Assembly: GCA_030538415.1 (NCBI GenBank)
Contig: JAUNTY010000024.1
Span: 1-40,121, forward strand
Direction: 5' to 3'
Origin: Neisseria sp.
GTDB lineage: Bacteria; Pseudomonadota; Gammaproteobacteria; Burkholderiales; Neisseriaceae
Length of the DNA stretch: 40,121 nucleotides
The notes under the pieces are model-generated. The model had not been told where the DNA came from. It did not search any database and worked only from the letters and a program-made list of their open reading frames with translations. Both the position numbers and the translations under genes were made by a program. Of the stretch, positions 3,765 through 36,748 are shown piece by piece (the first letter of the stretch is position 1; the number at the start of each line of letters is the position of its first letter).

Positions 3765-3836
3765 TGTAGTCGGAGAAATGAGATTCTGATACAAGGCGAG
3801 CCAACGCCGTAGCAGAAACTCATTTCTTCGACTATA
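3765..3836 (-). repeat. Correia-like element, short form
   Basis: A 72-bp element bounded by near-perfect inverted arms of the type TATAGTCGAAGAAATGAG. It carries only the outer part of the Correia core (TACGGCGTTGGCTCGCCTTGT), and the inner CCGTACTATCTGTACTGTC segment is missing. It directly abuts the speA stop codon, so it would be transcribed as the start of the speA 3' untranslated region. Confidence 0.75.
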
Positions 3837-5738
3837 TCAGCCGTTGTCTTCCAGGCTCAGATACGAGCTTTGTTTGAGGCCGCGGCAGAATTCGGCGAAG
3901 TATTGGTTGTGTTCTGTTTTGCCGAGCTTCGCCCAGCGGGATTTTTCTTCAAACTTGTTCAATACTTCTTCCGGCGAGAGGTGCACGTAGCGCAGCATGT
4001 CTTCGATGGTGTCGTGTTCTTCCATGCCGCCGAATTCCACTTTGCCGTCGTCGCGCACGTAGACGTTGACGGAATCGGTGTCGCCGAAGAGGTTGTGCAT
4101 GTCGCCGAGGATTTCCTGATAGGCGCCGACCATAAACACGCCCAGGAGGTAGGGTTCGCCTTCGTTGGGGGCGTGTATCGGCATGCTGGATTCGATGCTT
4201 TGCTGGTCGACATATTGGCTGACCTTGCCGTCGGAGTCGCAGGTGAGATCCTGCAACACGGCGCGGCGGGTCGGTTTTTCGTCAAGGCGGTGGATGGGCA
4301 TGATCGGCAGCACCTGGCCGATGGCCCAGGTGTCGGGCAGGCTTTGGAAAACGGAGAAGTTGCAGAAATATTTGTCGGCCAGCCTGTCGGTCAGGTCGTC
4401 AAACACCTGCCGCTGCGAGCGCTGGCCTGCCTGCAGCTGGCTTTTCAGACGGCGGCACAACACGGCGTGCAGCTGCTCGGCCAGCGCTTTTTCGCGCAGC
4501 GATACTTTGCCTTCGAGGTAGAGGCCGATGACTTCGGTGAGGTAGTGGCCGATGCGGTAATAGGTTTCGGTGACCATTTCGCTGTCGTCGGCGTCTTGCA
4601 GGCGGGTAATCAGCTTTTTGGTGGCAAACGATAATTCGGCTTCGTCGGCGATGTCGGGCATCTGCTCGGGCAGGCGCTCGACGTCGGTGACGTTCATCAC
4701 CAATACGGCGTGGTGCGCGGTCATGGCGCGGCCGGATTCGGAGAAGATATTGGGATGCGGCACGTTGTTTTCGTTGCAATATTCGGCCAGCATCGACACG
4801 ATTACGTGTGAGTATTCGCCGATGTCGTAATTGATGGAGCTGGCATTGCGCGAGTGGGTGCCGTCGTAGTCGACGCCCAAACCGCCGCCGACGTCGACAT
4901 ATTCTATCGGTAATCCCAAATCGCGCAGCTCGGCAAAATAGCGCACGGCTTCTTTAAAGCCCATGCGGTAGTCGGAAATATTGGAAATTTGCGAGCCCAT
5001 GTGGAAATGCATCAGCTTGACCGTGTCGGCGAGGCCGGCGGCGGTGAGCTTTTCGGCGGCGGAAATCAGCTGCGCGGCAGAGAGGCCGAATTTGCCCTTG
5101 TCGCCGCCGGTGTCCGCCCATTTGCTTGATGCCAGCGAGGAGAGGCGCACGCGCAGGCCGATGTTGGCCTTGACGCCGAGGTTGCGCGATTCTTCAATCA
5201 CGAGGTCGACTTCGGATTCTTTTTCGATGACGATAAACACCTGATGGCCGAGCCGCTGCCCCATCAGCGCGAGGCGGATGAAATCGCGGTCTTTGTAGCC
5301 GTTGCAGACGATGGTGCCGCCTTTGGGGGCAAACGCCAATACAATCATCAATTCGGGCTTGGAGCCTGCTTCGAGGCCGATGGATACTTCGTCGTTTTTC
5401 GGCACGATGATGTTTTTCACCACCGATTCCTGCTGGTTGACCTTGATGGGGTAAATGGCGGTATAGCGCCCCTGGTAGTCGTTTTTGCGGATGGAGCGGT
5501 TGAACGCGGCGCACAATCTGGCCACGCGGTCTTGCAGGATATCGGGAAAGCGGAACAGCATCGGCAAATCCTGCCCGCGCTCGTTGAGCTGCGCCACCAG
5601 CTCATACAGGTCTACCTGCATGTCGCTGCTGTCGTTCGGCTTCACCACCACACGCCCTTTTTCGCTGACCGAAAAATAGCGGTCGCCCCAATGGCGGATA
5701 CCATACAAACCTGCGCTGTCGGCAGCTGTCCACGTCAT
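3837..5738 (-). CDS. speA: Biosynthetic arginine decarboxylase
   Basis: A PLP-dependent enzyme converting arginine to agmatine and CO2, the first step of the agmatine route to putrescine. The ATG at 5738 gives 633 residues, close to the family's usual 630-660. It has a good AAGGA Shine-Dalgarno about 8 bases upstream, so the longer reading to 5819 is not supported. The PLP lysine is in YPIKVNQQ (Lys99). Further family signatures are [20 protein letters not shown] (phosphate-binding glycine loop) and SESGRA. The C-terminal part carries the extra helical region that separates SpeA from the shorter diaminopimelate and ornithine decarboxylases. It is monocistronic here. Confidence 0.96.
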
Positions 5739-6048
5739 CTGTCTGTCCTTTTTCCAAGCGGATATCCAACGGGAAATCCGGCCTGCTATCATATAGCCAA
5801 ACCCGCGCGGAAACAACATCCCGTTGCATGCATCGCGGCATGCGGGCTGCGTGGCCGGAAGGTTTCAGACGGCCTGCGGCGGAATGTGTATGGTCATGGG
5901 GCGGCCTGATTTTTGGCAGGCAAACACGAGCAAGGCCGTCTGAAAAACCACACCTAGGGTTTTCTTTTGCGTTTTCAGGCATCTGTTCATGCAACTGTAA
6001 CCGAAGCAGGTTCATAATGGGCGGGCACAGTCAAACAGGAGCGCCACC
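5739..6048. other. Divergent intergenic region with two DUS
   Basis: About 310 bases between the divergent speA and PAP2 genes. It holds two single DUS copies, at about 5864 (minus orientation) and 5936 (plus orientation), too far apart for a tight hairpin. Promoters for both genes must lie here, but no pair of hexamers stood out. Confidence 0.5.
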
Positions 6049-6579
6049 ATGAAGCTGCATCCGCTCGCCGCCTTCAGCGGCACCGATACCCGCCTGTTGT
6101 TCTGGTTCAACCGCCACAGCCGCAAACGCCTGATCGGCATCACCAGCCGCCAGGTTTCGCGTTTGGGCGACGGCTATTTATATGCGCTCGTCGGTTTGGC
6201 ATTGTGGTTGTTGGAAACGGCGCAGGGGGCGCTGTTTTTTTATAGCGGCCTTGCCGCTTATGCGCTGGAGCTGCCGCTGTATCTCGTGCTCAAAAACAGC
6301 ATCCGCCGCAGCCGCCCCTGCCACGGCGTGCGCGATATTTGTGCGCTTATCGAGCCTTCCGACAAATTCAGCTTTCCTTCCGGCCACACCGCTGCTGCGT
6401 TTGTATTTGCCACGCTGGTGGCGGCGTTTTATCCGCTGTTGGCGCCGTTTGCCTATACGTTGGCGGCTTTAATCGGACTTTCGCGCGTGATGTTGGGCGT
6501 GCATTATCCGTCGGACATTGCCGCCGGTGCGCTTCTGGGTGTGGCATGTTGCGAAGCCGCTTTATATCTGCTGGGGTGA
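6049..6579 (+). CDS. PAP2-family membrane phosphatase
   Basis: A 176-residue integral membrane protein of the type 2 phosphatidic acid phosphatase superfamily. All three catalytic motifs are visible: C1 as KNSIRRSRP (about residue 81), C2 as FPSGHTAA (about 108) and C3 as SRVMLGVHYPSD (about 145, with the catalytic His and Asp). Several hydrophobic segments surround them. The substrate cannot be read from the sequence; family members remove phosphate from phosphatidic acid, phosphatidylglycerol phosphate or undecaprenyl pyrophosphate. The start follows a clear CAGGAG Shine-Dalgarno. The next gene begins 5 bases after the stop, so the two are probably an operon, which hints at lipid-carrier or envelope glycan metabolism. 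Confidence 0.9.
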   Translation: MKLHPLAAFSGTDTRLLFWFNRHSRKRLIGITSRQVSRLGDGYLYALVGLALWLLETAQGALFFYSGLAAYALELPLYLVLKNSIRRSRPCHGVRDICALIEPSDKFSFPSGHTAAAFVFATLVAAFYPLLAPFAYTLAALIGLSRVMLGVHYPSDIAAGALLGVACCEAALYLLG

Positions 6580-6583
6580 AACC

Positions 6584-7633
6584 ATGCGAATTCTCTACGG
6601 CGTGCAGGGCACCGGCAACGGCCACATCACCCGCGCCCGCACCATGCTGCCTGCGCTGCGTGCGGCGGGTATTGATGTGGATTTCGTGTTTAGCGGCAGG
6701 CCGTCTGAACGCTATTTCGACATGGAAAGCTTCGGCCGCTACCGCGCTTTTGCCGGGCTGACCTACCATATGCACAAAGGCCGCGTGCGCTGGCCGCAAA
6801 CGCTCAGAAACGTGCAGGCGGGCAGGCTGGTTCGCGATGTGCGCGAATTGAACCTGAAAGGTTATGACTGCGTGCTCACCGATTTCGAGCCGGTCAGCGC
6901 GTGGGCGGCGAAGCTGCAGGGTGTGCCCGCGGTCGGGCTGGCGCACCAGTATGCCCTGCGCTATCCGATTCCGGGTGTGAAACCGTGGCTGAAATACGGC
7001 GTGAGCGCGTTTGCACCTGCCGACAAATATCTGGGGGTGCACTGGCAGCCGTTCGGCCATCCGGTGTTGCCGCCGCTGATTCAAACCGCGGCCGATGCGG
7101 CCGTCGGCGACGACGGTTTTATTCTGGTGTATCTGCCGTTTGAAAATTTCACTTTTGTCTGCCGCTGGTTGAAAACCATCACCGGCTGCCGCTTCCGCAT
7201 CTACACCGACACGCCGCGCGCGTTTTCAGACGGCCATATTGACGTGCGGCCGCTTTCCCGCGAAATGTTTCCGCAAGATTTGGCGCGTTGCAGCGGCGTG
7301 GTCTGCAACGCCGGGTTCGGCCTCTGCAGCGAGGTGATGGCGCTGGGCAAAAAAATGTTGGTGCGGCCGCTGCAAAACCATGTCGAGCAGCAGTCAAACG
7401 CGCTGATTCTGCAGCAAAGCGGCAGGGCAACCATCATGCGGCAGTTTGATGCGGCCATCTTGCAGGGCTGGCTGGCCGCGCCCGCGCCCGGCAAAATCTG
7501 TTTTCCCGCCGTGGCGCCCGCCGTGGCCGCATGGCTCGCCAACGGCTGCGTTGCAGACACGCAGGATTTGGCGGATTCGGTGTGGCAGAGCCGCATCGAA
7601 GTGCCCGCCGATGGCGCACGCGTGGCGGGGTGA
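6584..7633 (+). CDS. MJ1255/VC2487-family glycosyltransferase
   Basis: A 349-residue protein. The ATG at 6584 opens with MRILYGVQGTGNGHITRA, a glycine-rich nucleotide-sugar-binding N-terminus as in GT-B enzymes related to MurG. The C-terminal half contains FPQDLARCSGVVCNAGFGLCSE and a conserved QQSNAL segment, the MurG-like donor-binding region. This matches the uncharacterised MJ1255/VC2487 glycosyltransferase group. The longer reading from 6518 overlaps the upstream gene and adds no family sequence. It lies 5 bases after the PAP2 gene, probably co-transcribed. Acceptor and sugar are unknown. Two DUS lie inside the gene, encoding GRPSER and FSDGH. Confidence 0.85.
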   Translation: MRILYGVQGTGNGHITRARTMLPALRAAGIDVDFVFSGRPSERYFDMESFGRYRAFAGLTYHMHKGRVRWPQTLRNVQAGRLVRDVRELNLKGYDCVLTDFEPVSAWAAKLQGVPAVGLAHQYALRYPIPGVKPWLKYGVSAFAPADKYLGVHWQPFGHPVLPPLIQTAADAAVGDDGFILVYLPFENFTFVCRWLKTITGCRFRIYTDTPRAFSDGHIDVRPLSREMFPQDLARCSGVVCNAGFGLCSEVMALGKKMLVRPLQNHVEQQSNALILQQSGRATIMRQFDAAILQGWLAAPAPGKICFPAVAPAVAAWLANGCVADTQDLADSVWQSRIEVPADGARVAG

Positions 7634-7654
7634 GTATTCGCGATAATCATGTTG

Positions 7655-7684
7655 AGGCCGTCTGAAAACTTTTTCAGACGGCCT
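7655..7684 (+). terminator. DUS inverted pair after glycosyltransferase
   Basis: Perfect 14-bp arms with a 2-base loop, 22 bases after the stop codon. It directly abuts a MITE end, GAGACC, at 7685. Confidence 0.75.
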
Positions 7685-7740
7685 GAGACCTTTACAAAAT
7701 ACCTTTTGCGATGCAGCAAAAGGTATTTTGCAAAGGTCTC
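7685..7740. repeat. 56-bp palindrome with IS5-type ends
   Basis: It starts GAGACCTTTACAAAATACC and ends with the near-complement GGTATTTTGCAAAGGTCTC, around a short centre, so it is essentially two inverted ends without an interior. The same outer sequence bounds the larger repeats at 7919, 18302, 24895 and 28163. From memory, GAGACCTTTGCAAAATTCC is the terminus of neisserial IS1106/IS1655-type IS5-family elements, so this may be a minimal non-autonomous derivative. Confidence 0.65.
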
Positions 7741-7757
7741 GGCCTTATCAGTAGGTA

Positions 7758-7774
7758 GTGTGGGCTCAGCCCAC
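7758..7774. repeat. Small GC-rich palindrome
   Basis: GTGGGCTCAGCCCAC forms a short hairpin. A similar one (GCGGGCGAAGCCCGT) lies near 18535. Both sit between a MITE end and a Correia-like element. The role is unknown. Confidence 0.4.
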
Positions 7775-7791
7775 GTTTTTGATTAAACCTC

Positions 7792-7897
7792 TATAGTGGA
7801 AAAACTTAATTCCTACTACGGCGTTGCTGCGCCTAGCCGTACTAGCTGTACTGTCTGCGGCTTGCTGCCTTGTATTAGAGTAAGTTTTCCCACTATA
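7792..7897 (+). repeat. Correia-like element, full length
   Basis: A 106-bp element with arms TATAGTGGAAAAACTTA and TAAGTTTTCCCACTATA around the Correia core (TACGGCGTTG, then CCGTACTAGCTGTACTGTC, then GCGGCTTGCTGCCTTGT). This arm type starts TATAGTGG like the canonical Correia element but continues differently. Confidence 0.8.
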
Positions 7898-7918
7898 TAT
7901 CGAGACCTCGGACGGCCT

Positions 7919-8235
7919 GAGACCTTACAAAATGACCCCGCTCGTCGCACCCGCGCAGGCGGGTGCCCAGTCTGAAGCAGCGCTTCAGCTCGAACTAGCC
8001 AGCTCTGGAAATTTATATAGTGAAAAAACTTAATATCTGCTACGGCGTTGCTGCACCTTGCCGTACTATCTGTACTGTCTGCGGCTTGCTGCCTTGTCTC
8101 AATCTAACGAAACGACTATACAACGTTTTGATTCATATTGGATTTTTAGAATCAGAAAATAGGTAGACAAGCAAAGCTGCGCTTTGCACTGGGCACCCGC
8201 CTGCGCGGGTGCGACGAACAGGGGAATTTTGCAAA
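7919..8235. mobile_element. MITE-like palindromic repeat with nested insertion
   Basis: The left end is GAGACCTTACAAAAT; the right end is an eroded AATTTTGCAAA. Inside are inverted blocks of the type CGCACCCGCGCAGGCGGGTG, each followed by a small hairpin (CTGAAG...CTTCAG on the left, AAAGC...GCTTT on the right). Compared with the uninterrupted copy at 28163-28376, it is split by a Correia-like element at 8016-8120. No protein-coding content. Confidence 0.7.
8016..8120 (+). repeat. Correia-like element with mismatched arms, nested in MITE
   Basis: A 105-bp element with the standard core. The left arm TATAGTGAAAAAACTTAATA resembles the element at 7792. The right arm TCTAACGAAACGACTATA resembles the element at 24913. 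The two arms therefore do not pair well beyond TATAGT, unlike the other copies. It interrupts the MITE-like repeat at a TA-rich site. Confidence 0.75.
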
Positions 8236-8270
8236 AATCCCCGTTTGTTCGGCATTTTGAAAGCCCAAAG

Positions 8271-8304
8271 AAAAAAGGCCGTCTGAAAACAGATTCAGAC
8301 GGCC
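8271..8304 (-). terminator. DUS inverted pair with T-run, terminator of DAHP synthase
   Basis: 11-bp arms (8277-8287 and 8294-8304). On the minus strand the hairpin is followed by six T residues, the classic Rho-independent form. Confidence 0.8.
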
Positions 8305-8335
8305 GTTAAGGTTTAATACCAGCTTGAGTCGTTTT

Positions 8336-9379
8336 TTATACGCGGCGGCGGTTGGCTTCGGCCAGCAGCGCCAGCATTTCTTCGGTGGCATCCCAGCCGA
8401 TGCAGGCGTCGGTGATGCTCTGGCCGTAGGTTTCCGGCTTATCCTGGCGGCCTTCGACCAGATGGCTTTCCACCATCACGCCCATGATGTTGTTTTCACC
8501 GTTGCGGATTTGTTCGGCCACATCCACCGCCACTTCCATTTGGCGTTTGTAGTCTTTGCGGCTGTTGGCGTGGCTGAAATCCACCATCAGCTTGGGGGTA
8601 ACGCCTGCTTTGGTGAGCTGCTCGGCGGCGGCTTTGACGTATTCGCTTTCGTAGTTCGGCTCTTTGCCGCCGCGCAGAATCACGTGGCAATGCGGGTTGC
8701 CGGCGGTGTGGACGATGGCGGAATGGCCGGCTTTGGTCACCGACAGGAAGTGGTGCGGATGCGAAGCCGCGCCGATGGCGTCGATGGCGATTTTGAGGTT
8801 GCCGTCGGTGCCGTTTTTGAAGCCGACCGGGCAGGAAAGGCCGCTGGCCAGCTCGCGGTGCACCTGGCTTTCGGTGGTGCGCGCGCCGATGGCGCCCCAT
8901 GAAATCAGGTCGGCATAGTATTGCGGCGTAATCATGTCGAGAAATTCGGTGGAGGCGGGCATGCCCATGTCGTTGAGGGTGAGCAGCAGTTGGCGCGCCC
9001 GGCGCAGGCCGAAATTGATGTCGAAGCTGCCGTCGAGATGCGGGTCGTTAATCAGGCCTTTCCAGCCGACGGTGGTGCGCGGTTTTTCGAAATATACGCG
9101 CATCACAATCAGCAGCTCTTTTTCGTATTTTTTGCGCAGCGGCAGCAATTTTTGTGCGTATTCCAGCGCGGCATCGGTGTCGTGAATCGAGCAGGGGCCG
9201 ATGATGACCAGCAGGCGGTTGTCGTCGCCGCTGACCAGGCGGGCGATGTCGTGGCGGGTATCGTATACCAGCTCGGCGGCGGCTTCGCTGATGGGCAGTT
9301 CGTACAAATGGGCAATCGGCGGCAGCAGTTCTTTGACTTCCTTGATTTTGATATCGTCTGTTTGGCGTTGAGGGCTCAT
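8336..9379 (-). CDS. aroG: 3-deoxy-7-phosphoheptulonate synthase, class I
   Basis: A DAHP synthase of 347 residues that condenses phosphoenolpyruvate with erythrose 4-phosphate, the first step of the shikimate pathway. Length and sequence match the class I alpha group (AroF/AroG/AroH, about 350 residues). Signatures are GPCSIHD (about residue 61), MRVYFEKPRTTVGWKG, GARTTESQ, CPVGFKNGTDG and VDFSHANS, which contain the substrate- and metal-binding residues. The N-terminal extension of about 45 residues is the part that binds feedback inhibitor in this class; the phenylalanine-sensitive type is usual in Neisseria, but this is not proved from sequence. An AAGAAGAA purine run precedes the ATG. 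Confidence 0.95.
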   Translation of the reverse strand: MSPQRQTDDIKIKEVKELLPPIAHLYELPISEAAAELVYDTRHDIARLVSGDDNRLLVIIGPCSIHDTDAALEYAQKLLPLRKKYEKELLIVMRVYFEKPRTTVGWKGLINDPHLDGSFDINFGLRRARQLLLTLNDMGMPASTEFLDMITPQYYADLISWGAIGARTTESQVHRELASGLSCPVGFKNGTDGNLKIAIDAIGAASHPHHFLSVTKAGHSAIVHTAGNPHCHVILRGGKEPNYESEYVKAAAEQLTKAGVTPKLMVDFSHANSRKDYKRQMEVAVDVAEQIRNGENNIMGVMVESHLVEGRQDKPETYGQSITDACIGWDATEEMLALLAEANRRRV

Positions 9380-9470
9380 GGGTTTCTTCTTTTAGATGTT
9401 AAATAATAATGTGGGGTGAAGCTTAACGTGTTTGCGGCGGGCTGGCAAGCGACCTATGCTTTTTTGCGCT

Positions 9471-9499
9471 ATTTTATTGCGTAAAACTCAAATTTTGAA
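9471..9499 (-). promoter_or_regulatory. Candidate promoter for DAHP synthase
   Basis: On the minus strand, TTCAAA (9494-9499) and TAAAAT (9471-9476) are separated by exactly 17 bases in an AT-rich stretch. It would give a leader of roughly 85 bases before the ATG at 9379. It was found by eye; other AT-rich hexamers exist nearby. Confidence 0.35.
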
Positions 9500-9565
9500 T
9501 TTATTCAGAATTTAAATGGGTTAATTTCGCTAATTATAGCATTATGTGTCTTGATAATATGTTGC

Positions 9566-9597
9566 AAGGCCGTCTGAAAACGGTTTCAGACGGCCTT
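9566..9597 (-). terminator. DUS inverted pair downstream of tlpA
   Basis: 14-bp perfect arms with a 4-base loop, about 80 bases after the tlpA-like stop codon. The T-run is on the plus-strand side, so termination in the minus direction is less certain. Confidence 0.6.
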
Positions 9598-9678
9598 TTT
9601 ATGGTCGGGAAACACACTTCATGCAAGGCGCGGCAAGGTCGGATGAAACCTAGGTTTCCCGGCTGCAATATCGAAACA

Positions 9679-10167
9679 TTATTTCGCCAGCTCTTGGTCA
9701 ATTTCCCGATAAAGGGCGTCGAAGTCGGGCTCGCCGACAAAGGTTTTCAAAATTTCGCCTTTTTTGTTGATGAAAAACGAGGTCGGGTAGACCTGCGTGC
9801 CGAAGGCTTTGCCCACGCTGCCGTCGGCGTCATACATCACGGTAAACGGCAGGCCGCGGGTGGCAACGTAGTTTTTCACGCTCTCAAGCGGGTCGAAAGG
9901 CTCGGAGATGGCGATAATCTGGAAATCTTTGCCTTCGTAATCGCGGGCGGTTTTGATGAGCTTGGGCATTTCGCTCACGCAGCCGGGGCAGGAAGGATAC
10001 CAGAAATTAATCAGTGTCACCTTGCCTTCCAGGTTGGCATTGTTGACCGTTTGCCCGTTTAAATCGGGTAGGGAAAAGGCGGGCGCGGGCTGGTTTTTCG
10101 GCCACAGCACCACGCCGATCAATACGGCCACCACGGCAAGGGCGGCCAGGGCAAAAATCTTTTTCAT
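9679..10167 (-). CDS. TlpA-like thiol:disulfide oxidoreductase
   Basis: A 162-residue protein anchored or exported by one N-terminal hydrophobic segment (about residues 3-20), so the thioredoxin fold faces the periplasm. The active site is CPGC in NFWYPSCPGCVSEMP (Cys at about 62 and 65). The cis-proline region is TQVYPTSFFIN. This is the AhpC/TSA-Redoxin arrangement of TlpA/ResA proteins, which reduce disulfides, often in cytochrome c maturation. The ATG at 10167 overlaps the stop of the upstream thioesterase as ATGA, indicating translational coupling and favouring this start over an in-frame TTG at 10191. The partner protein is unknown. Confidence 0.88.
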   Translation of the reverse strand: MKKIFALAALAVVAVLIGVVLWPKNQPAPAFSLPDLNGQTVNNANLEGKVTLINFWYPSCPGCVSEMPKLIKTARDYEGKDFQIIAISEPFDPLESVKNYVATRGLPFTVMYDADGSVGKAFGTQVYPTSFFINKKGEILKTFVGEPDFDALYREIDQELAK

Positions 10168-10568
10168 GCGGGTTGTTTCGGTAATCGGCAAAGGTATTGG
10201 AATAATTCGGGATTCAAATCGGTGGCGCGGCCTGTTGCGCCGCTGACAGGCACCAGCGTGATTTCGGCTTCCACGGCATTTTTGCCCGCTTCGGCCAGCA
10301 CGATGTTTTGCGTCAGCTGCACTTGGCGCGGCTCGACATGGTTGACAAAGGTATCTACGCGCAGTATGTCGCCTGCCGTGGCAGGGCGGCGGTAGCGGAT
10401 GTCGATGCGCGCCACCACCATCATTTCGCCCTGCAGATAGCGCATCAGTTGGTGTTGCTCGAAAAACGCCCAGCGCGCTTCCTCGAGAAACTCCAGATAG
10501 CGCGCGTTGTTGACATGGCCGTAGCCGTCGAGATGGTAGCCGCGTACGCGGATGGTGGTGTCGCTCAT
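10164..10568 (-). CDS. Acyl-CoA thioesterase, 4HBT hotdog family
   Basis: A 134-residue protein with the hotdog-fold signature VRGYHLDGYGHVNNARYLEF near the N-terminus. The Asp and the GHVNN segment are the catalytic region of YbgC/4-hydroxybenzoyl-CoA thioesterase relatives. It is predicted to hydrolyse acyl-CoA thioesters in the cytoplasm; the substrate is not known. It is the middle gene of a three-gene minus-strand set: 17 bases after the upstream unknown gene (a gap that holds a DUS) and overlapping tlpA by ATGA. The linkage to a thioredoxin is positional and does not show a shared pathway. Confidence 0.88.
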   Translation of the reverse strand: MSDTTIRVRGYHLDGYGHVNNARYLEFLEEARWAFFEQHQLMRYLQGEMMVVARIDIRYRRPATAGDILRVDTFVNHVEPRQVQLTQNIVLAEAGKNAVEAEITLVPVSGATGRATDLNPELFQYLCRLPKQPA

Positions 10569-10585
10569 GGGATGGCCGTCTGAAA

Positions 10586-11262: not shown

Positions 11263-11308
11263 GGCAAAAGGCCGTCTGAAACATTGGGGTTTCAGACGGC
11301 CTTTTGCC
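11263..11308 (-). terminator. Extended DUS inverted pair, terminator of mla cluster
   Basis: Perfect 20-bp arms starting GGCAAAAGGCCGTCTGAAAC with a 6-base loop, 16 bases after the mlaA stop codon on the minus strand. The arms extend well beyond the DUS itself. Confidence 0.8.
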
Positions 11309-11324
11309 GTTGATTCAAACCGTA

Positions 11325-14546: not shown

Positions 14547-14621
14547 TATAGTCGAATAAATGAGTTTCTGCTGCGGCGTTGGCTCGCTGCCTTGTATCAG
14601 AATCTCATTTCTCCGACTTTA
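14547..14621 (+). repeat. Correia-like element, short form, in mla cluster
   Basis: 75 bp. Arms of the TATAGTCGAATAAATGAG type flank a shortened core GCGGCGTTGGCTCGCTGCCTTGT. The right end is slightly mutated (GACTTTA for GACTATA). It sits between mlaF and mlaE. Confidence 0.75.
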
Positions 14622-18301: not shown

Positions 18302-19778
<1,477 letters not shown>

Positions 19779-24894: not shown

Positions 24895-25214
24895 GAGGCC
24901 TTTGCAAAAAAATATAGTCGTTTCAATTTAGTTTGATACAGCGTTGCTGCGCCTTGCCGTACTATCTGTACTGTCTGCGGCTTGCTGCCTTGTCTCAATC
25001 TAAATTGAAACGACTATAACCGTCGCACCCGCGCAGGCGGGTGCCCGGTCTGAAGCGTAGCTTCAGCTTAAACTTTCCAGTCTTGGGAATACACAACCCA
25101 ATGATTCATCTTAAGCTTTTGAAATCGGAAAGATAGGCAGACAAGTAAAGCTGCGCTTTGCACTAGGCACCCGCCTGCGCGGGTGCGACGAGCGAGGAAT
25201 TTTGCAAAGGTCTC
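24895..25214. mobile_element. MITE-like palindromic repeat with Correia-like insertion near its left end
   Basis: The left end GAGGCCTTTGCAAAAA is immediately followed by a Correia-like element. After that the repeat resumes with CGCACCCGCGCAGGCGGGTG and finishes with the intact right end GAATTTTGCAAAGGTCTC at 25214. Removing the insertion leaves about 214 bp, the size of the copies at 18302 and 28163. Confidence 0.72.
24913..25018 (+). repeat. Correia-like element, full length, nested in MITE
   Basis: 106 bp, arms TATAGTCGTTTCAATTTAG and CTAAATTGAAACGACTATA (perfect), around the full core with CCGTACTATCTGTACTGTC. This is a third arm type, distinct from those at 3765 and 7792. Confidence 0.8.
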
Positions 25215-28162: not shown

Positions 28163-28376
28163 GCGACCTTTGTAAAAAATAACCGTCGCACCCGCGCAGG
28201 CGGATGCCCAGTCTGAAGCGCAGCTTCAGCTCAAACTTTCCAGCTCTAGAAATTCACAACCTCAAGATTCATCTTGGATTTTTAGAATCAGGAAAATAGG
28301 CAGACAAGCAAAGCCGTGCTTTGCACTGGGCACCCGCCTGCGCGGGTGCGACGGGTGGGAGATTTTGCAAGGTCTA
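28163..28376. mobile_element. MITE-like palindromic repeat, uninterrupted copy
   Basis: About 214 bp. The left end is GCGACCTTTGTAAAA; the right end is GATTTTGCAAGGTCTA. Inner inverted blocks lie near 28186 and 28328, each with a small adjoining hairpin. This copy has no insertion and serves as the reference for the others. It sits between two DUS hairpins. Confidence 0.7.
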
Positions 28377-29731: not shown

Positions 29732-29744
29732 TTGAGAAAGCGTA

Positions 29745-29786
29745 AAGGCCGTCTGAAAGAGCCGTTTGGTCTTTCAGACGGCTTTT
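29745..29786 (+). terminator. DUS inverted pair after solute-binding protein
   Basis: GGCCGTCTGAAAG and CTTTCAGACGGC arms 14 bases after the stop codon, followed by TTTT. Confidence 0.7.
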
Positions 29787-29982
29787 ATGGATATGGCGGC
29801 ATTGCCGTAAAACTTACTCTCTGACTATATCTGTTTTATTTTATTCGCATAAAAGCTATTTTCTGCCGACTCTCTGTTCATCAGCCGAACAAAGCACCCG
29901 TTGCATGTAAAAGTCACTTTTCCGATTGGAAACATTGCTTAAAAAATGTACAATCCAAACCTTTCCCCTCGTTTTTACAAGC

Positions 29983-30990
29983 ATGCAAATCGGCGCTTAC
30001 GCCATCGATACCCCTATTGCGCTCGCGCCGATGGCGGGCATTACCGACAAACCGTTTCGCCGCCTGTGCCGTGAATTCGGAGCGGGCTGGCTGGTGGGCG
30101 AGATGCTGACCAGCGATCCGTCATTGCGGCACACACGCAAAAGCCTGCGCCGCAGCGATTTTGACGGCGAAGAGGGTGTGCGCGTGGTGCAGATTGCCGG
30201 CAGCGACCCTGCGCAACTGGCAGAGGCCGCCCGCTATAATGTGGCTCAAGGCGCCGAAGTCATCGACATCAATATGGGCTGCCCGGCGAAAAAAGTATGC
30301 AATGTGCTGGCAGGCAGCGCGCTGTTGCAAAACGAGCCTCTGGTGGCGGCAATCCTGAATGCGGTGGTCAAAGCCGTGGATGTGCCGGTTACCCTGAAAA
30401 CCCGCCTGGGCTGGCACGACGAACATAAAAATATTCTGACCGTTGCGAAAATGGCCGAAGAAGCCGGTATCGCCGCACTGGCCATTCACGGCCGCACACG
30501 CACGCAAATGTACAAAGGTGCAGCCAGCTACGAGCTGATTGCCGAAGTGAAAAGCCGCATCAACCTGCCTTTATGGGCAAACGGTGACATCACCTCGCCG
30601 CAAAAGGGCGTCGCCGTATTGGCGCAAACCGGCGCCGACGGCGTGATGGTCGGGCGCGGTGCGCAAGGGCAGCCGTGGTTGTTTCGTGATTTGAAGCATT
30701 ACCTTGCCACGGGTGAATTGCCTGCGCCGCCGGGTTTGGCCGAATGCAGCGCCACGATGTTGCGCCACTTGCAGGCCATGCACGAATTTTACGGCGGGCT
30801 TGCGGGCATGCGCATCGCGCGCAAACACATAGGCTGGTATCTCGATCCTTTGCCCGGCGGCGAATCGGCGCGGCGTGAAATAAACCGCCTCGACAGCGCG
30901 GCGGCGCAATACGATGCCGTGGCGGCATTTTTGGAAAAGCTGCCGCAAGCGGCTGATGGCTGGGTCTGCGCTTATCGCGAGGCCGTCTGA
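29983..30990 (+). CDS. dusB: tRNA-dihydrouridine synthase B
   Basis: A 335-residue flavoenzyme reducing uridine to dihydrouridine in the tRNA D-loop. The ATG at 29983 gives MQIGAYAIDTPIALAPMAGITD, the canonical DusB start; the longer frame from 29926 is not needed. The catalytic cysteine is Cys100 in INMGCPAKKV. FMN-binding segments are IHGRTRTQMYKG, ANGDI and GVMVGRGAQGQPW. The segment after the catalytic cysteine reads KKVCNVLAGSALL where many DusB proteins have KKVNRKLAGSALL. The stop codon lies within a DUS. In many proteobacteria dusB is followed directly by fis; here an acyltransferase gene lies between them. Confidence 0.94.
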   Translation: MQIGAYAIDTPIALAPMAGITDKPFRRLCREFGAGWLVGEMLTSDPSLRHTRKSLRRSDFDGEEGVRVVQIAGSDPAQLAEAARYNVAQGAEVIDINMGCPAKKVCNVLAGSALLQNEPLVAAILNAVVKAVDVPVTLKTRLGWHDEHKNILTVAKMAEEAGIAALAIHGRTRTQMYKGAASYELIAEVKSRINLPLWANGDITSPQKGVAVLAQTGADGVMVGRGAQGQPWLFRDLKHYLATGELPAPPGLAECSATMLRHLQAMHEFYGGLAGMRIARKHIGWYLDPLPGGESARREINRLDSAAAQYDAVAAFLEKLPQAADGWVCAYREAV

Positions 30991-31604
30991 AACGATTAGA
31001 CCGAGTTAGCAACAAGTGGACACATTTCCATCGTTGTCGTGACAGCCGCATTTCTGACACATACCGCTCCGGCGGTATTTGGAGAATTTCCCAGGCTCTG
31101 CGCTTTTACACGGCCAACGCATCAAATAAAGCACATTGCCCTGCTTTCTTATGCCAAAGGCTTGCAGTGTTTTGCAGCCATGGCCTGCTATCTCGCGTTA
31201 TACCAAACCACGGACACCAATTCATAAAAGTAAGCTGACAAGCCCGCCAGCTTCGTACTTGCAATGGCTAAACAACTGAATTCAGCATACGGCGTTGCTG
31301 CGGCTTGCTGTTTTGTATGAAAAAAATATTGCTGGGCTACATGTGTTTGTGGGGAATAAATTTTGAACAAAATGACACCGTTGTTTTTCTTTCGCCTTTA
31401 TTCTATGCCGTCCAAAATATTTTACGGCTTATGTTTTTTTAGTAGGGCCAACCGGATGGATTTGTCCGGAGCGGGGAAGTTTTGTTTGCGCCCATGCTGA
31501 ACAAATGCTCTGTAGAAGCTGTTGGTTTTCTGGATATGACGACTGATTGGCTCTGCCATATCAGGAATGAATTGTCGCTAAATTAGGAATAGATAAGGAA
31601 CGGA
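30991..31604. other. AT-rich gene-free stretch with degenerate repeat
   Basis: About 610 bases between dusB and the acyltransferase. It is visibly richer in A and T than the neighbours. At 31288-31320 the sequence ATACGGCGTTGCTGCGGCTT...TTTTGTAT is a degraded Correia-like core with recognisable arms lost. No complete DUS and no convincing small gene; the short frames here have no ribosome sites. It probably includes one boundary of a gene acquired between dusB and fis. Confidence 0.5.
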
Positions 31605-33518
31605 ATGAAATATCGTAGTGAAATTGACGGGTTGCGTGCGTTGGCAGTATTGCCGGTAATTTTCTTTCATGCCGGGTTCTCCGCATTTCAAGGTGGCTTT
31701 GTCGGTGTGGATGTATTCTTTGTCATCAGCGGCTATCTCATCACCACTATCCTGCTCTCCGATATGGAAAAAGGGCGCTTTTCGCTGATAACTTTTTACG
31801 AACGGCGATTCCGTCGTATTTTGCCAGCTTTGTTTTTTGTGATGATGGCGACGCTGCCGTTTGCATTGATGTGGCTGATGCCGTCAGAATTAAAAGCCTA
31901 CGGCCAGAGCTGGGTGGCAGTAGCGTTATTTTCCTCCAATATTTTATTTTGGCTTACCAGCGGCTATTTTGAAACTGTTGCTGAATTGAAACCACTTCTG
32001 CACACTTGGAGCCTGGGTGTGGAAGAGCAGTATTACGTATTTTTTCCGCTATTGCTGATGTTGTTGTGGCGGCGGGGGCGGCGTTGGTTGCTGCCGGCAT
32101 TGTTGCTGATTGCGGTGGTGAGTCTGGCGGCATCGGAATGGGCAGTCCGCCAATATCCGTCGGCGGCATTTTATTTGTTGCCTTTCCGTGCCTGGGAGCT
32201 GCTGACTGGAGGATTTATTGCATGGTATTTTTCCCGGCATGATCGCTTGGCACAAAGTTTGGCAGCTAACCAATGGGGCAGTTTGGCCGGGTTGGTTTTC
32301 CTGCTGGTTGCTATCTTCGGGTATAATCGGCATATTCCGTTTCCCGGTATCAGTGCGGTGCTGCCGGTGTTGGGTACGGCGTTGATTATCATTTTTGCCA
32401 CGCCGCAAACCTGGGTTGGCAAGTTGTTGTGCAACAGATTTATGGTGCAGATCGGCCTGATTAGTTACAGTGCCTATTTGTGGCATAATCCGCTGTTTGC
32501 CTTTGCCAGAGTGCGTTCTGAGTTTCATGTCGAGTCGGCGCCATTAATGCTGGCTTTAGCAGTTTTGTCGCTGGTGCTGGCTTACTTTACATGGAAATAT
32601 GTAGAGGCACCGTTCCGCAGGAAAGAAGGCTTTAACCGGCGGCAGATCTTCCAGATGAGTTTCTGCGGCAGTTTTTTGATATTTGCGGTAGGGTTGGCCA
32701 GTCATTTTTATTTCCAAGCCAAGGAACCTCAGATTGATTATCAGTGGGGAAAGCATGTCCGGCAATATGAATGTCTGATTCAGGACAGCCACGAAAACCG
32801 GCAGCAGCCTGAATGTTATGCCGAAGGGAGCAATACGGTATTGCTGTGGGGCGACAGCCATGCGGCTTCACTCTATCCGGGATTGGCCGGTTTTGCCCGT
32901 AATAACGGCATCGCACTGACCCAACTCAATCAATCGGCCTGTCCTCCGATGCTGGGTTTGCCGCAGGCAGATGTTGAGCGGAAAAATTGCAGCCGCATCA
33001 ATCAAAGAATTATCGCAGATATTGCTCATTACCGTTACAATACAATCATTTTGCACAGCATGTGGCTTTATGATCGGGCTCCCGCGAGTTATGAGGAAAT
33101 CAGCAATCATTTGGAAGAAACGATTCGCAGTATTTATCGTGTGTCCCCAAAAACGAAAGTTCTGGTTATAGGCAATATACCGCGCTGGTATATTTCTGCC
33201 GAACGTGCCTACACCCGGGTGTCGGATGATAAGGCCAAATATACGGATAAAGAGGAGGAGCTGTTGGGTGGTGCCGTGCTGTTGCCAGAATTGGAAGCCA
33301 CGTTGAAGCGTACGGCGGAAAGTAATCGGGCGACTTTTATCGCACCCTCTGTATATTTGTGCGAATCGGGAAGCCAGGAACACCGTTTATGCCTACTGTC
33401 ATTGGATGGCAGCCGCGAGGGAATGGCATATATTGATGCCAACCATCTGTCGAAAGCGGGTGCAGATACGCTGATATCAAGAATGGCACCGGAGCTGAAA
33501 GCTGCCTTGCAACCCTGA
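31605..33518 (+). CDS. OafA/OatA-like membrane O-acyltransferase with SGNH domain
   Basis: A 637-residue protein. An N-terminal acyltransferase-3 domain of about ten helices (about residues 1-370) has EIDGLRALAVLPVIFFHAG, RRFRRILPAL and TWSLGVEEQYYVFFP. A C-terminal periplasmic SGNH domain has the nucleophile Ser418 in LWGDSHA and the Asp611/His614 pair in DANHLSKAGA. Such two-domain proteins O-acetylate surface polysaccharide, lipooligosaccharide or peptidoglycan from cytoplasmic acetyl-CoA. The acceptor here is unknown. AAGGA lies 5 bases before the ATG. The gene is visibly AT-richer than dusB and purH, contains no complete DUS and interrupts the dusB-fis pair, all consistent with acquisition. 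Confidence 0.92.
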   Translation: MKYRSEIDGLRALAVLPVIFFHAGFSAFQGGFVGVDVFFVISGYLITTILLSDMEKGRFSLITFYERRFRRILPALFFVMMATLPFALMWLMPSELKAYGQSWVAVALFSSNILFWLTSGYFETVAELKPLLHTWSLGVEEQYYVFFPLLLMLLWRRGRRWLLPALLLIAVVSLAASEWAVRQYPSAAFYLLPFRAWELLTGGFIAWYFSRHDRLAQSLAANQWGSLAGLVFLLVAIFGYNRHIPFPGISAVLPVLGTALIIIFATPQTWVGKLLCNRFMVQIGLISYSAYLWHNPLFAFARVRSEFHVESAPLMLALAVLSLVLAYFTWKYVEAPFRRKEGFNRRQIFQMSFCGSFLIFAVGLASHFYFQAKEPQIDYQWGKHVRQYECLIQDSHENRQQPECYAEGSNTVLLWGDSHAASLYPGLAGFARNNGIALTQLNQSACPPMLGLPQADVERKNCSRINQRIIADIAHYRYNTIILHSMWLYDRAPASYEEISNHLEETIRSIYRVSPKTKVLVIGNIPRWYISAERAYTRVSDDKAKYTDKEEELLGGAVLLPELEATLKRTAESNRATFIAPSVYLCESGSQEHRLCLLSLDGSREGMAYIDANHLSKAGADTLISRMAPELKAALQP

Positions 33519-33675
33519 TGTCTCCATGTCGGGATAATAGTTGCTTGGAATATTCTTAATTTGAGATACAAGAAATCTGAAACTGTTTAATAGCTGCCGG
33601 ATGGCGCGCCTCATTGGGAGGATGCTTGTGCAATGTGGTGAAGTGAGCAGTTCAGAGCAGTAACAAGAAAATATT

Positions 33676-33918
33676 ATGCCGAATAAAAACACTGATATTG
33701 CTCATTGCATCGAGCAGAATTTAAAACAATATTTCCGCGACCTGGATGGCGAAATGCCCTGCGCGGTATATGACATGGTAATTTTCCAAGTGGAAAAACC
33801 GATGCTGGAATGTGTGATGGCCGAATGCGGCGGCAACCAGTCGAAAGCTGCGGCGATGTTGGGGCTCAACCGCAATACCTTGCGCAAGAAATTGTTGCAG
33901 CACGGCCTGATTGAATAA
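33676..33918 (+). CDS. fis: DNA-binding protein Fis
   Basis: An 80-residue Fis-family nucleoid protein. The C-terminal helix-turn-helix [25 protein letters not shown] is highly conserved. The N-terminal arm is shorter than in the 98-residue E. coli protein, as is usual in betaproteobacteria. Fis bends DNA and modulates transcription of stable RNA and many growth-phase genes. The ribosome site is weak (AAGAAAA). In relatives it is co-transcribed with dusB; here the acyltransferase and 157 bases of spacer precede it. A good terminator follows. Confidence 0.94.
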
Positions 33919-33927
33919 TTAAATTTT

Positions 33928-33967
33928 ACGGGTGGTTTGCCGAGCGCAGGCCGCCCGTTGTTTTTTG
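33928..33967 (+). terminator. Rho-independent terminator of fis
   Basis: ACGGGTGG pairs with CCGCCCGT (one G-T pair) around a 16-base loop, followed by TTGTTTTTTG. It is not DUS-based, unlike most in this window. It lies 9 bases after the fis stop. Confidence 0.7.
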
Positions 33968-33998
33968 TTTTACCCATCTCCAAATAAAGGAACGGATA

Positions 33999-35576
33999 AT
34001 GTCAGCAGTAAAACGAGCGTTAATCAGTTTGTCCGACAAAAAAGGCGCGACCGAATTCGCCCGCGCCCTGCATGAAGCAGGCGTGGAAATCCTCTCCACC
34101 GGCGGCACCGCCAAGCTCTTGGCCGATGCGGGCATTCCCGTCATCGAAGTGGCCGACTACACAGGCTTCCCCGAAATGCTCGACGGCCGCGTGAAAACCC
34201 TGCATCCGAAAATCCACGGCGGCATTCTCGGCCGCCGCGATTTGGACGAACACGTCGAAAAAATGGCCGAACACGACATCGGCAACATCGACCTCGTCTG
34301 CGTCAACCTCTACCCCTTTGCCGCCACCATCGCCAAGCCCGGCTGCACGCTGGAAGACGCGATTGAAAACATCGACATCGGCGGCCCGACCATGGTGCGC
34401 TCGGCGGCGAAAAACTGGAAACACGTCGCCATCGTCACCGACAACGCCGATTTTGACAGCGTAATCGCCGAATTACAGGCCAACGGCGGCGCATTGAGCG
34501 ACAAAACCCGCTTCAACCTCTCGCGCAAAGCCTTCAGCCACACCGCCCAATACGACGGCATGATTTCCAACTACCTCACCAGCGTTTCCGATGAAAAACT
34601 CAGCGGCGAACCGGAAGTGGGCGCGTTTCCCGGCCAAATCAACGGCAGCTGGAAAAAAGTGCAAGATCTGCGCTACGGCGAAAACCCGCATCAACAAGCC
34701 GCGTTTTACCGCGATTTTTATCCCGCCGCAGGCAGCCTGAGCGCCTATGAGCAATTGCAGGGTAAAGAATTGTCGTACAACAACATCGCCGATGCCGATG
34801 CCGCCTGGGAAGCCGTGAAAGCCTTTGACGAACCCGCCTGTGTGATCGTGAAACACGCCAACCCCTGCGGCGTAGCGGTGGCCGCCGACACCTTGAGCGC
34901 CTACAAACTCGCTTTTGCCACCGACACCACCAGCGCATTCGGCGGCATCATTGCCTTTAACCGCGAAGTCGATGCCGAAACCGTCGAAGCCGTGACCGGC
35001 CAATTCCTCGAAGTGTTGATGGCGCCGAAATTCACCGACAAAGCCAAAGAAATCATCGCCGCCAAGAAAAACGTGCGCGTGTTGGAAGTGCCGCTGATGG
35101 CCGGTGCCAACCGCTTCGAATTGAAACGCGTCGGCGGCGGTTTGCTGGTGCAAACGCCCGACATCCACCGCATCCGCCGCGATGATTTGAAAGTAGTGAG
35201 CAAACGCCAGCCGACCGAGCAGGAATGGAAAGACCTGATGTTTGTGTGGAACGTGGCCAAATATGTGAAATCAAACGCCATCGTGTTCGGCAAAGGCGGC
35301 CAAACCTACGGCATCGGCGCAGGCCAGATGAGCCGCGTCGATTCCACCCGCATTGCCGCCCGCAAAGCGCAAGACGGCGGTTTTGATTTGAACGGCGCGT
35401 GCGCCGCTTCGGATGCGTTTTTCCCGTTCCGCGACGGCATCGACGTGATTGCCGAGCAGGGTATCAAAGCGATTATCCACCCGGGCGGCTCCATGCGCGA
35501 CCAGGAAGTGTTCGACGCTGCGGATGAACACGGCATCGCCATGATTCTCACCGGCGTGCGCCATTTCCGCCATTAA
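33999..35576 (+). CDS. purH: Bifunctional AICAR transformylase / IMP cyclohydrolase
   Basis: A 525-residue PurH catalysing the last two steps of de novo IMP synthesis. The N-terminal cyclohydrolase (about residues 1-200) has [22 protein letters not shown] and [15 protein letters not shown]. The transformylase domain has [23 protein letters not shown] (catalytic Lys-His) and [21 protein letters not shown] precedes the ATG. The gene immediately follows fis, a linkage I recall from other Neisseria genomes. Its codon use is strongly biased to C-ending codons, as expected for a well-expressed housekeeping gene. Confidence 0.97.
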
Positions 35577-35590
35577 TACCGCATGAGCAT

Positions 35591-35635
35591 CAAAGGCCGT
35601 CTGAAAACCTGTTGCGGGTTTTCAGACGGCCTTTT
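35591..35635 (+). terminator. DUS inverted pair after purH
   Basis: CAAAGGCCGTCTGAAAACC and near-complement arms with a short loop, 15 bases after the stop, followed by a partial T-run. Confidence 0.75.
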
Positions 35636-36093
35636 GCTGCCTGCTGTTAAAAATAATGGGGCAAGCCGAATCCGTGGTTTTTCAGACAAACGGAAGCCCC
35701 AGGCATATATTGGCAATGCGGTATGAGTGCCATCATCAAACATGATGATGAAGACATGAAATGGTTTCTCATGGAAAGTATTGCAAAATCATATATTTGG
35801 CTTGGTTTGAATTATTTCTTGCAGAGCAGGTTGACATAAAATCAACTTGATGACAGTTTTGCTCATGACAAGGTAAACATTGCGTAAAAGCAGGGCGGGC
35901 AAAGGCAATTCCATCGTCATGAAAAATGCTTGATTTTGGGGTTTGTGTGTGAGAAAGCAGGATTATGCAAAAAAGGTAACCATAGGGAAACTACACCGGG
36001 TTACAAGACGTCTGAATACTGCCGACGGAATGTTTCTGCGGCAGTTTTCAAACTTGTTGAACTTGCTGTTTACTTTTAGTGAAGGAATGAATC
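35636..36093. other. AT-rich gene-free stretch upstream of secreted repeat protein
   Basis: About 460 bases. It contains a TTGACA at 35831 without a matching -10 at normal distance and a degenerate DUS (ACGTCTGAA) near 36009. A 67-residue plus-strand frame (35943-36146) overlaps the next gene and looks spurious. It probably carries the long upstream region of the gene at 36094. Nothing else was recognised. Confidence 0.45.
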
Positions 36094-36588
36094 ATGAATA
36101 CAATCGTAAAATTTTTCGCCCTGCCTGCCTTGGCCTTGTCTTTTAGTGCCGCTGCCTATGCCGGTGACCGTGTCTGCAACGGCAGCTTGGGCAGTGTCAA
36201 AATCGACGAAAACGTGGTGGTAGAAAAAGGCGCGAGCTGCACGCTGAACGGTACGGTTATCGACGGCAATGTGAAAGTGTATCAGGGCGGCAAGCTGCAA
36301 AGCCGCAATGCCCGCATCGACGGTGATATTCAGGCCGACAAGGCTGCGTCGCTTAATGTAAGCGGCGGCTCGGTAGACGGCAATATCCAGATTAAAGAAA
36401 GCGGCGCGGTGCAAATCAGCGGTGTGCGCGTCAACGGTGACATCCAGCTGTTTGACAATAAGGCGGCGGTAGCAGTTAACCGCAACACGGTTGACGGCAA
36501 TCTGCAATGCAAGAGCAACAGCCGCCAGCCGACAGGCAGCGGCAACCGTGTGAAAGGTAATAAAGAAGACCAGTGCCGCAGTTTGTAA
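36094..36588 (+). CDS. Small secreted beta-solenoid-like repeat protein
   Basis: A 164-residue exported protein. A clear signal peptide (about residues 1-23, ending AAAYAG) follows GAAGGA and an ATG at 36094. The mature part repeats a motif of about 20 residues: TVIDGNVKV, ARIDGDIQA, GSVDGNIQI, VRVNGDIQL and NTVDGNLQC. This regular [VI]-[DN]-G-[ND]-[IVL]-x pattern is that of a short beta-helix, as in bactofilin-like and related proteins, but I do not recognise a specific family. Four cysteines in the mature protein (two near the start, two near the end) could form two disulfides that cap the solenoid. Function unknown. Confidence 0.8.
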   Translation: MNTIVKFFALPALALSFSAAAYAGDRVCNGSLGSVKIDENVVVEKGASCTLNGTVIDGNVKVYQGGKLQSRNARIDGDIQADKAASLNVSGGSVDGNIQIKESGAVQISGVRVNGDIQLFDNKAAVAVNRNTVDGNLQCKSNSRQPTGSGNRVKGNKEDQCRSL

Positions 36589-36591
36589 GCA

Positions 36592-36748
36592 TATAGTCTG
36601 AGAGTAAGCTTTACTACGGCGTTGGCTCACCTTGCCGTACTATAGTCGAAGAAATTAGTTTCTGCTACGGCGTTGGCTCGCCTTGTCGTACTATCTGTAC
36701 TGTCTGCGGCTCGCCGCCTTGTATTAAAACTTCATTTCTCTGACTATA
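36592..36748 (+). repeat. Composite Correia-like repeat (truncated plus full copy)
   Basis: The left half of one element (36592-36640, arm TATAGTCTGAGAGTAAGC, ending in the core at GCCGTAC) runs straight into a second, complete element (36641-36748, arms TATAGTCGAAGAAATTAG and CTTCATTTCTCTGACTATA). The second copy is full length, with the whole core. The right half of the first is missing. Confidence 0.75.

What the first reader, a model, noticed from the sequence alone, without database searches (positions are those of the whole stretch)
3765..36748. Correia-like elements keep a constant core but swap whole arm sequences
At least six elements plus a composite share the core TACGGCGTTG ... 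CCGTACTATCTGTACTGTC ... GCCTTGT. Their inverted arms fall into three types: TATAGTCGAAGAAATGAG (3765, 14547, 18561, 36641), TATAGTGGAAAAACTTA (7792) and TATAGTCGTTTCAATTTAG (24913). Within an element the two arms still match almost perfectly, so both change together while the centre stays fixed. This is odd for simple decay and suggests arm conversion, selection for the palindrome, or separate source elements. Canonical Correia arms (TATAGTGGATTAAA) are absent.
Basis: partly seen in the sequence, partly recalled or inferred. Interest (0 to 1): 0.75.

Follow-up and report, generated by a model that had tools for sequence, protein, structure and literature searches.

The report
Correia-like repeats with interchangeable arms
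A Neisseria genome is full of small repeats that keep the centre of the well-known Correia elements but wear several different pairs of end sequences, and some of those ends look like the ends of IS630 insertion sequences, which points to a candidate for the unidentified enzyme that moves them.

Summary
The core 16-mer occurs 272 times in this genome (reversed control 0). In the 687 kb examined (24% of it), 140 of 158 candidates had both arms classified: 119 matched (shuffled mean 44), 20 hybrid, 1 unclear. Arms also covary within other genomes (310 of 378 positions; within-genome shuffles at most 298).

Ongoing arm-to-arm conversion is poorly supported, because fixed left/right differences persist. 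Separate amplified lineages fit, with exchange by recombination in the core and nesting at a core TA.

New here: IS630 insertion sequences of Neisseriaceae mostly end in TATAG arms resembling element arms (hand-compiled 10-unit test p=0.0005, though the home IS630 is the best match in only 2 of 10). Both G038 copies of the A-arm 17-mer are IS630 ends. This genome has IS630 remnants with ends like arms A and B. Arm C has no found source.

Best reading: a Correia-type core moved in trans by IS630 transposases. Movement is untested. New variant of a known kind.

The parts
3765..3836 (-). short (72 bp) element, A arms, central core segment missing
   Evidence: RNA fold z -7.8
7792..7897 (+). 106 bp element, B arms (left TATAGTGGAAAAACTTAATTCC, right TATAGTGGGAAAACTTACTC)
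   Evidence: fold z -3.5
8016..8120 (+). hybrid element: B-type left arm, C'-type right arm, full core; inserted with a TA duplication into a 192-nt repeat whose three other copies in the window are uninterrupted
   Evidence: no long hairpin, fold z -1.3
7919..8235 (.). 192-nt repeat copy (others at 18314-18506, 25016-25207, 28179-28370) interrupted by the hybrid element; the others supply its empty site
14547..14621 (+). short (75 bp) element, A arms
   Evidence: fold z -4.5
18561..18627 (-). short (67 bp) element, A arms, reduced core
   Evidence: not among the 158 pattern candidates and not folded
24913..25018 (+). 106 bp element, C arms (TATAGTCGTTTCAATTTAG), full core
   Evidence: fold z -8.3
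36592..36640 (+). composite, outer-left arm (A2 type TATAGTCTGAGAGTAAGC) and left half-core up to CCGTAC
36641..36748 (+). composite, inner A-type left arm at the core TA, core, and a right arm whose inner part resembles the A2 type
   Evidence: fold z -5.1

Best explanation
These are non-autonomous mobile elements (MITEs) built on the Correia core, in several source lineages that differ in their terminal arms. The arms are transposase-recognition ends of the IS630 type: TATAG start, TA target, TA duplication. IS630-family transposases, present now or in the past, move the elements in trans, so both ends of a mobile lineage must suit the same enzyme and change together, while the core is a passenger or is constrained for another reason. 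Several lineages (A, B, C, D and sub-types) were amplified in one genome. Half-elements were then exchanged by homologous recombination inside the shared core and by one element inserting into another's core TA, which leaves hybrids and composites. Shown: paired arms, hybrids, TA insertion, nesting, IS630 ends with similar arms, IS630 remnants in this genome. Inferred: that IS630 transposase moves the elements, and the order of events.
For: Paired arms: 119 of 140 matched (118 as scored plus L108:382, on reading a matched pair of a further arm type); shuffled mean 44, max 62. Covariation in other genomes: 310 of 378, within-genome shuffles max 298. Fixed left/right differences kept across copies.

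TA duplication: of 114 usable elements 11 sit at the TA of another element's GTAC-TA-TCTG core with both half-cores flanking (1-2 mismatches allowed), 10 more have one half-core, 9 have A-arm sequence on at least one side. The hybrid's empty site agrees.

IS630: PF13358 in 29 of 83 family genomes; in the genus in 20 of 36 core-bearing genomes but 1 of 10 core-less ones (Fisher p=0.013; 4 of the 10 are under 90% complete). Most copies end in TATAG. A-arm 17-mer: 347 here, 44 in G010, 1 in G008, 2 in G038, none in the other 79; both G038 places are IS630 ends; the G008 one reads as a Correia-type right end. This genome: a 55-bp IS630 3' end opens contigs C6 and C12; 5'-end sequence closes C78 and, on C22, is cut by an A-type element; a further fragment with PF01710, 53.3 bits, has a B-like end.

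Ungapped identity, positions 7-28, hand-picked pairs: arm A right vs own IS630 3' end 14/22 (7 of 20000 shuffles as good); B2 left vs the second IS630 5' end 16/22 (0); canonical left/right vs IS630 5'/3' ends 15/22 (3) and 16/22 (0). Same-unit association p=0.0005, 0.0016 and 0.0028. An IS630 junction in G039 lies at the same core TA, one side seen.
Against: 16 of 36 core-bearing genus genomes have no PF13358 match at E<=0.001, among them G024 with 164 exact core copies, and this genome itself; G005, G008, G012 and G026 have none at E<=0.01 either. In the association test the unit's own IS630 is the best match in only 2 of 10 units, is beaten by one unit in 5, and by 2 to 6 units in 3; the effect is modest (0.583 vs 0.521), the maximum statistic gives p=0.007-0.014, and the lists were compiled by hand. 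Arm C matches this genome's IS630 3' end poorly (6/22; 12575 of 20000 shuffles as good), arm A the own 5' end weakly (10/22; 1801). No IS630 with C arms was found, though that search held only 5 family genomes. Crossed canonical pairings score nearly as well (14/22, 15/22). The C78 and C29 matches to the G038 element are weak (E 0.026 and 0.014), and C29 is an element arm, not an IS630. Shared descent and AT-rich composition could inflate similarity.
Confidence: 0.58

Rival explanations
1. Arm families are old source lineages, and the paired arms are kept by selection for an RNA (or single-strand) hairpin, for example as an RNase III substrate; the IS630 likeness is incidental.
For: Six folds of matched or composite elements beat shuffles (z -3.5 to -8.6) and the two folds of the hybrid do not stand out (z -1.3 and -1.1). 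RNase III cleavage depending on symmetric ends is described in PMC2649163 (passages).
Against: Any matched inverted repeat folds well, so folding cannot separate the readings. A strand-biased wobble signal is not robust: 17 vs 3 distinct mismatches (p=0.003) in other genomes at positions 6-12, but 6 vs 6 in this genome, and p=0.21 and 0.82 over positions 6-18. It does not explain IS630 likeness or TA insertion.
Confidence: 0.19
2. Arm conversion: one arm is copied onto the other through the hairpin (template switching), so both change at once.
For: Three elements carry a rare substitution in both arms (L096:14722, L089:12180, L086:16686), more than independent mutation would suggest by rough reckoning, not tested. 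Terminal paired changes occur with the inner arms left different (TATAGTTAATC vs TATAGTCAATC in N. wadsworthii and G006), as a short copied tract could give.
Against: Fixed left/right differences persist, and 31 of 40 rare-variant counts are not mirrored. The mirrored cases could be small subfamilies. 20 hybrids remain unconverted.
Confidence: 0.13
3. Ordinary divergence of one MITE family with no link to IS630; recombination among copies makes the mosaics.
For: Recombination in the core is supported: in 5 of the 7 full-length hybrids with a class-A arm (A2 and A3 left out) the switch lies in mid-core (read). 16 of 36 core-bearing genomes show no PF13358 match.
Against: Arms A, B and C are very unlike while the core is nearly invariant; IS630 ends share start, target, spacing and, in several lineages, arm sequence.
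Confidence: 0.1

Closest known systems
Correia repeat enclosed elements (CREE, NEMIS) of Neisseria
   Same: Core CGTACTATCTGTACTGTCTGCGGC, asymmetric inner ends (...TACGG on one side...ACAAGG on the other), size classes near 70, 105 and 155 bp, TA duplication, over 100 copies; canonical-arm copies in relatives share the same core.
   Different: The 26-bp repeat TATAGTGGATTAA..., by which the surveys seen here find these elements, is nearly absent from the 687 kb examined; at least four other arm families replace it, several in one genome, with hybrids between families.
RUP of Streptococcus pneumoniae (MITE thought to be moved by IS630-Spn1)
   Same: 107 bp, TA target, ends like those of an IS630 element (PMC2229807, passages).
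   Different: Here one core is combined with several arm families that differ by lineage.
IS630-family insertion sequences of Neisseriaceae
   Same: Mostly TATAG ends, TA target, ends matched within a copy and differing between lineages; one copy (L300, G043) has ends of two types.
   Different: About 900 bp with a transposase gene; visible likeness to the repeats is confined to roughly the outer 28 bases.

Membership tests
Correia repeat enclosed element | conserved core | tested here: met
   272 exact 16-mers in this genome; matches in 36 of 46 genus genomes, this one included; reversed control 0
Correia repeat enclosed element | canonical 26-bp terminal repeat TATAGTGGATTAA... | tested here: not met
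   0 in the window; in 687 kb only 2 places within 1 mismatch of the 13-mer
Correia repeat enclosed element | size classes 69-73, 104-108, 153-157 bp | tested here: met
   lengths of 158 candidates cluster near 72, 104-108 and 150-157, with others between, against PMC2649163 (passages)
Correia repeat enclosed element | TA target duplication | tested here: met
   11 nested insertions; empty site of 8016-8120
Correia repeat enclosed element | IHF site in the long form | not tested
   long forms seen; IHF site not examined
IS630-derived MITE | terminal repeats like those of an IS630 element | tested here: inconclusive
   arms A, B and canonical resemble an IS630 of the same genome or group; D only one of another genome (15/22); C poorly the own IS630 (6/22), better the canonical-group one (13/22)
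IS630-derived MITE | mobilised by the IS630 transposase | not testable with these tools
   needs an assay
IS630-derived MITE | internal sequence derived from the IS element by deletion | not tested
   printed ends look alike only over about 28 bases; the core was not compared with IS630 interiors

The most novel reading that the evidence does not exclude
The Correia core is a transposon chassis that has repeatedly changed its transposase: over Neisseria evolution it took on the ends of successive IS630 families, so the core, not the 26-bp Correia repeat, defines the family, and IS630 transposases are the missing Correia mobilisers. Arm-based surveys would then have overlooked large populations of these elements.
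Probability: 0.37. Interest if true: 0.78.

Novelty: new variant of a known kind. Interest (0 to 1): 0.62.

Why it matters
Papers seen here, from 2007 and 2009, state that the mechanism moving Correia elements was undetermined (PMC2229807, PMC2649163; passages). IS630 elements with similar ends, target and lineage pattern make that question directly testable in a harmless laboratory host. Two published surveys searched by arm sequence (PMC5039591, first of four parts seen; PMC2911385, passages), and such a search would miss most of this population of over 270 exact core copies. The system also offers a natural experiment on how a non-autonomous element keeps two ends matched while changing both.

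Tried and rejected
Rfam scan of the window: nothing at gathering threshold. PF01609 in this genome: 2 matches, no TATAG ends seen. Long inverted TATAG pairs without a core in the 115 loci then held plus the window: 36 pairs, 34 at Correia-type elements, 2 unconvincing. C-arm search over 200 genomes of the order, only 5 of them from this family, this genome included: 228 here, scattered 2-mismatch hits in 6 others, no more than the reversed control gave; G010, not in that sample, has a C-type right end at a contig edge (L195). Strand-biased wobble as evidence of RNA selection: not robust.

Rows dropped: 18 of 158 candidates (12 with one arm classified, 6 with neither). Of the 22 rows printed there as hybrids, L108:382 was re-read as a matched pair of a further type (TATAGTCAGGAAA) and L082:11369 as unclear. 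In some searches, 22 of 28 labels gave parsed elements; 68 of 76 rows passed the end filter, 54 distinct, 21 labels; some labels may be the same species (Nwads and MAG33 against G handles) and one is Pasteurella.

Literature searches. No title or abstract listed there ties Neisseria IS630 ends to Correia arm types; most listed papers were not opened. PMC2817692 (passage) calls Correia elements IS630-derived, citing a 2002 paper of which I saw nothing. PMC3024310 is not held.

Bias: the own-genome stretches were chosen around known core hits, so the 687 kb is element-rich. The arm lists were compiled by hand after I had looked at the sequences, from a few loci per genome, without correction for the number of pairs.
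Full report
What is there. The window (contig C60 of genome G000, 2.84 Mb in 106 contigs) carries six small elements and one composite: 3765-3836, 7792-7897, 8016-8120, 14547-14621, 18561-18627, 24913-25018 and 36592-36748. The shared central motif has no chance matches in shuffles. The element at 8016-8120 was missed, and it matters: its left arm is B-type and its right arm C-type.

Genome-wide. TACTGTCTGCGGCTT occurs 206 times exactly in this genome and CTGTACTGTCTGCGGC 272 times; the latter is in 36 of 46 genus genomes, this one included, with no hit for the reversed control. I took 40 stretches around known hits; with the window they make 687,422 bases, 24% of the genome. A pattern search gave 158 candidates. 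Both arms could be classified in 140: 118 fall in one super-class as scored, 119 after re-reading one; shuffled mean 44, maximum 62; 20 are hybrids and 1 is unclear. Core subtypes go with the neighbouring arm: left arm A with GCTCGC in 36 of 48, with CTGC in 1, unscored in 11; left arms B and C with CTGC in 38 of 40 and 43 of 47. In 5 of the 7 full-length hybrids with a class-A arm the switch lies in mid-core; in one it lies between left arm and core, in one between core and right arm (read).

Do the arms change together? Yes, by lineage. In 54 distinct arm pairs under 21 labels, positions 6-12 agree at 310 of 378; shuffling right arms within each label gives mean 277 and maximum 298 in 2000 trials (a few rows are evident mis-parses and were left in). 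Within A/A elements the G/T choice at position 16 is correlated between arms (22, 4, 4, 9; Fisher p=0.003). Yet fixed left/right differences persist: position 9 is A/G in 27 of 39. In N. wadsworthii and G006 the tips change in both arms (TATAGTTAATC or TATAGTCAATC) while the inner arms stay different. Copying of whole arms would have erased those differences.

How they insert. Of 114 elements with clean ends and enough flank, 11 sit at the TA of GTAC-TA-TCTG in another element's core with both half-cores flanking (1-2 mismatches allowed), 10 show one half-core, and 9 have A-arm sequence on at least one side. The hybrid 8016-8120 interrupts a 192-nt repeat whose three other window copies supply its empty site; with one TA removed the length fits. 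In the composite, CCGTAC of an outer-left half-core stands directly before an A-type left arm, and the right end resembles the outer type; nesting followed by loss between repeated right half-cores is the simplest reading (inference).

The IS630 link. PF13358 finds nothing in this genome at E<=0.001 but matches in 29 of 83 family genomes. Within the genus, 20 of 36 core-bearing genomes have a match against 1 of 10 core-less ones (Fisher p=0.013; 4 of those 10 are under 90% complete). The other 16 core-bearing genomes, G024 with 164 copies among them, have none, which counts against a resident IS630 as a constant partner. The IS630 copies examined, found with a 860-945 base limit, mostly end in TATAG arms that match within a copy and differ between lineages. 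In the canonical group the IS630 5' end (..AATAGTAC..) and 3' end (..AATAGGACA..) mirror the canonical elements' ..CCAGTAC and ..TCAGGACA sides; identity at positions 7-28 is 15/22 and 16/22 (3 and 0 of 20000 shuffles), while crossed pairings score 14/22 and 15/22. The A-arm 17-mer TATAGTCGRAGAAATKA occurs 347 times here, 44 in G010, once in G008, twice in G038 and in no other of 83 genomes. Both G038 places are IS630 ends; the G008 one reads as a Correia-type right end. From matching contig number and position, G010 appears to be Bergeriella denitrificans (L064).

IS630 in this genome. Contigs C6 and C12 open with the same 55 bases, an IS630 3' end 86-88% like those of G038 over about 50 bases. 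A 5' end closes contig C78 (E 0.026) and a 5' fragment on C22 (E 9e-15) is interrupted by an A-type element. Identical contig starts suggest a repeat that the assembly could not cross (inference). C6 also holds a second IS630 fragment with an HTH_Tnp_IS630 domain (53.3 bits, cut-off 21.3) and the end TATAGTTAAAACACTTAATTTG, which matches arm B2 left at 16/22. So arms A and B have related IS630 ends at home. Arm D is nearest to an IS630 of G011 (15/22); arm C has no good partner (6/22 with the own IS630, 13/22 with the canonical one).

Association test. For 10 units with both IS630 ends and elements, mean similarity within a unit was 0.583 against 0.521 after permuting units (p=0.0005); without the canonical unit p=0.0016, without this genome p=0.0028; with the maximum statistic p=0.007, 0.012 and 0.014. 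The unit's own IS630 was the single best in 2 of 10, beaten by one other in 5 and by 2, 3 and 6 others in the rest (from the printed two-decimal matrix). The lists were hand-compiled from few loci, so this is support, not proof.

Arms without core. Among the 14 G010 loci looked at, several hold only the two arms back to back, TATAGTCGGAGAAATTAATTTCTCCGACTATA or a near copy (L171, L183, L185, L189); this genome has one such palindrome (L095:13549). The arms thus occur without the core, which fits the view that arms and core are separable; whether these arose by insertion or by loss of the core was not tested.

Function. Six folds of matched or composite window elements beat their shuffles (z -3.5 to -8.6); the two strands of the hybrid do not stand out (z -1.3 and -1.1). 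Symmetric ends are reported to govern RNase III cleavage (PMC2649163, passages), so arm exchange could switch that property; this is inference.

Verdict. By the core these are Correia-type elements; by the published arm definition they are not. The best reading is a Correia-core MITE with several IS630-type end pairs, moved in trans by IS630 transposases. The movement step is untested.

Noticed in passing
L171, L183, L185, L189 (G010) and L095 13549 (G000): Core-less palindromes of about 32 bases made of two A arms back to back.
   Followed up: partly
L054 6899-6923 (Pasteurella testudinis) and L070 1588-1612 (Testudinibacter aquarius): Elements with this genome's arm types (B; C'/C) in Pasteurellaceae, beside GCCGTCTGAA uptake sequences joined to CCGCACTTT, which I recall as part of the Pasteurellaceae uptake signal; suggests transfer between families.
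   Followed up: partly
window 7919-8235, 18314-18506, 25016-25207, 28179-28370: A separate 192-nt repeat with a CGTCGCACCCGCGCAGGCGGGTGC dyad at both ends, four copies in the window, one interrupted by the hybrid element.
   Followed up: partly
L300 438-1318 (G043): IS630 copy with 5' and 3' ends of two different arm types, so IS630 ends seem to recombine too.
   Followed up: no
L316 360-415 (G039): An IS630 copy starts at the core TA of a canonical element, the site used by nested elements (one base different in the flank); the contig ends inside, so one side only was seen.
   Followed up: partly
window 29813-29829 and 31278-31316: A lone A2-like arm without core, and a degenerate core-like stretch without arms.
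   Followed up: no
L084 3265-3348: A pair of A2-like arms, about 84 bases end to end, with no Correia core between them.
   Followed up: no
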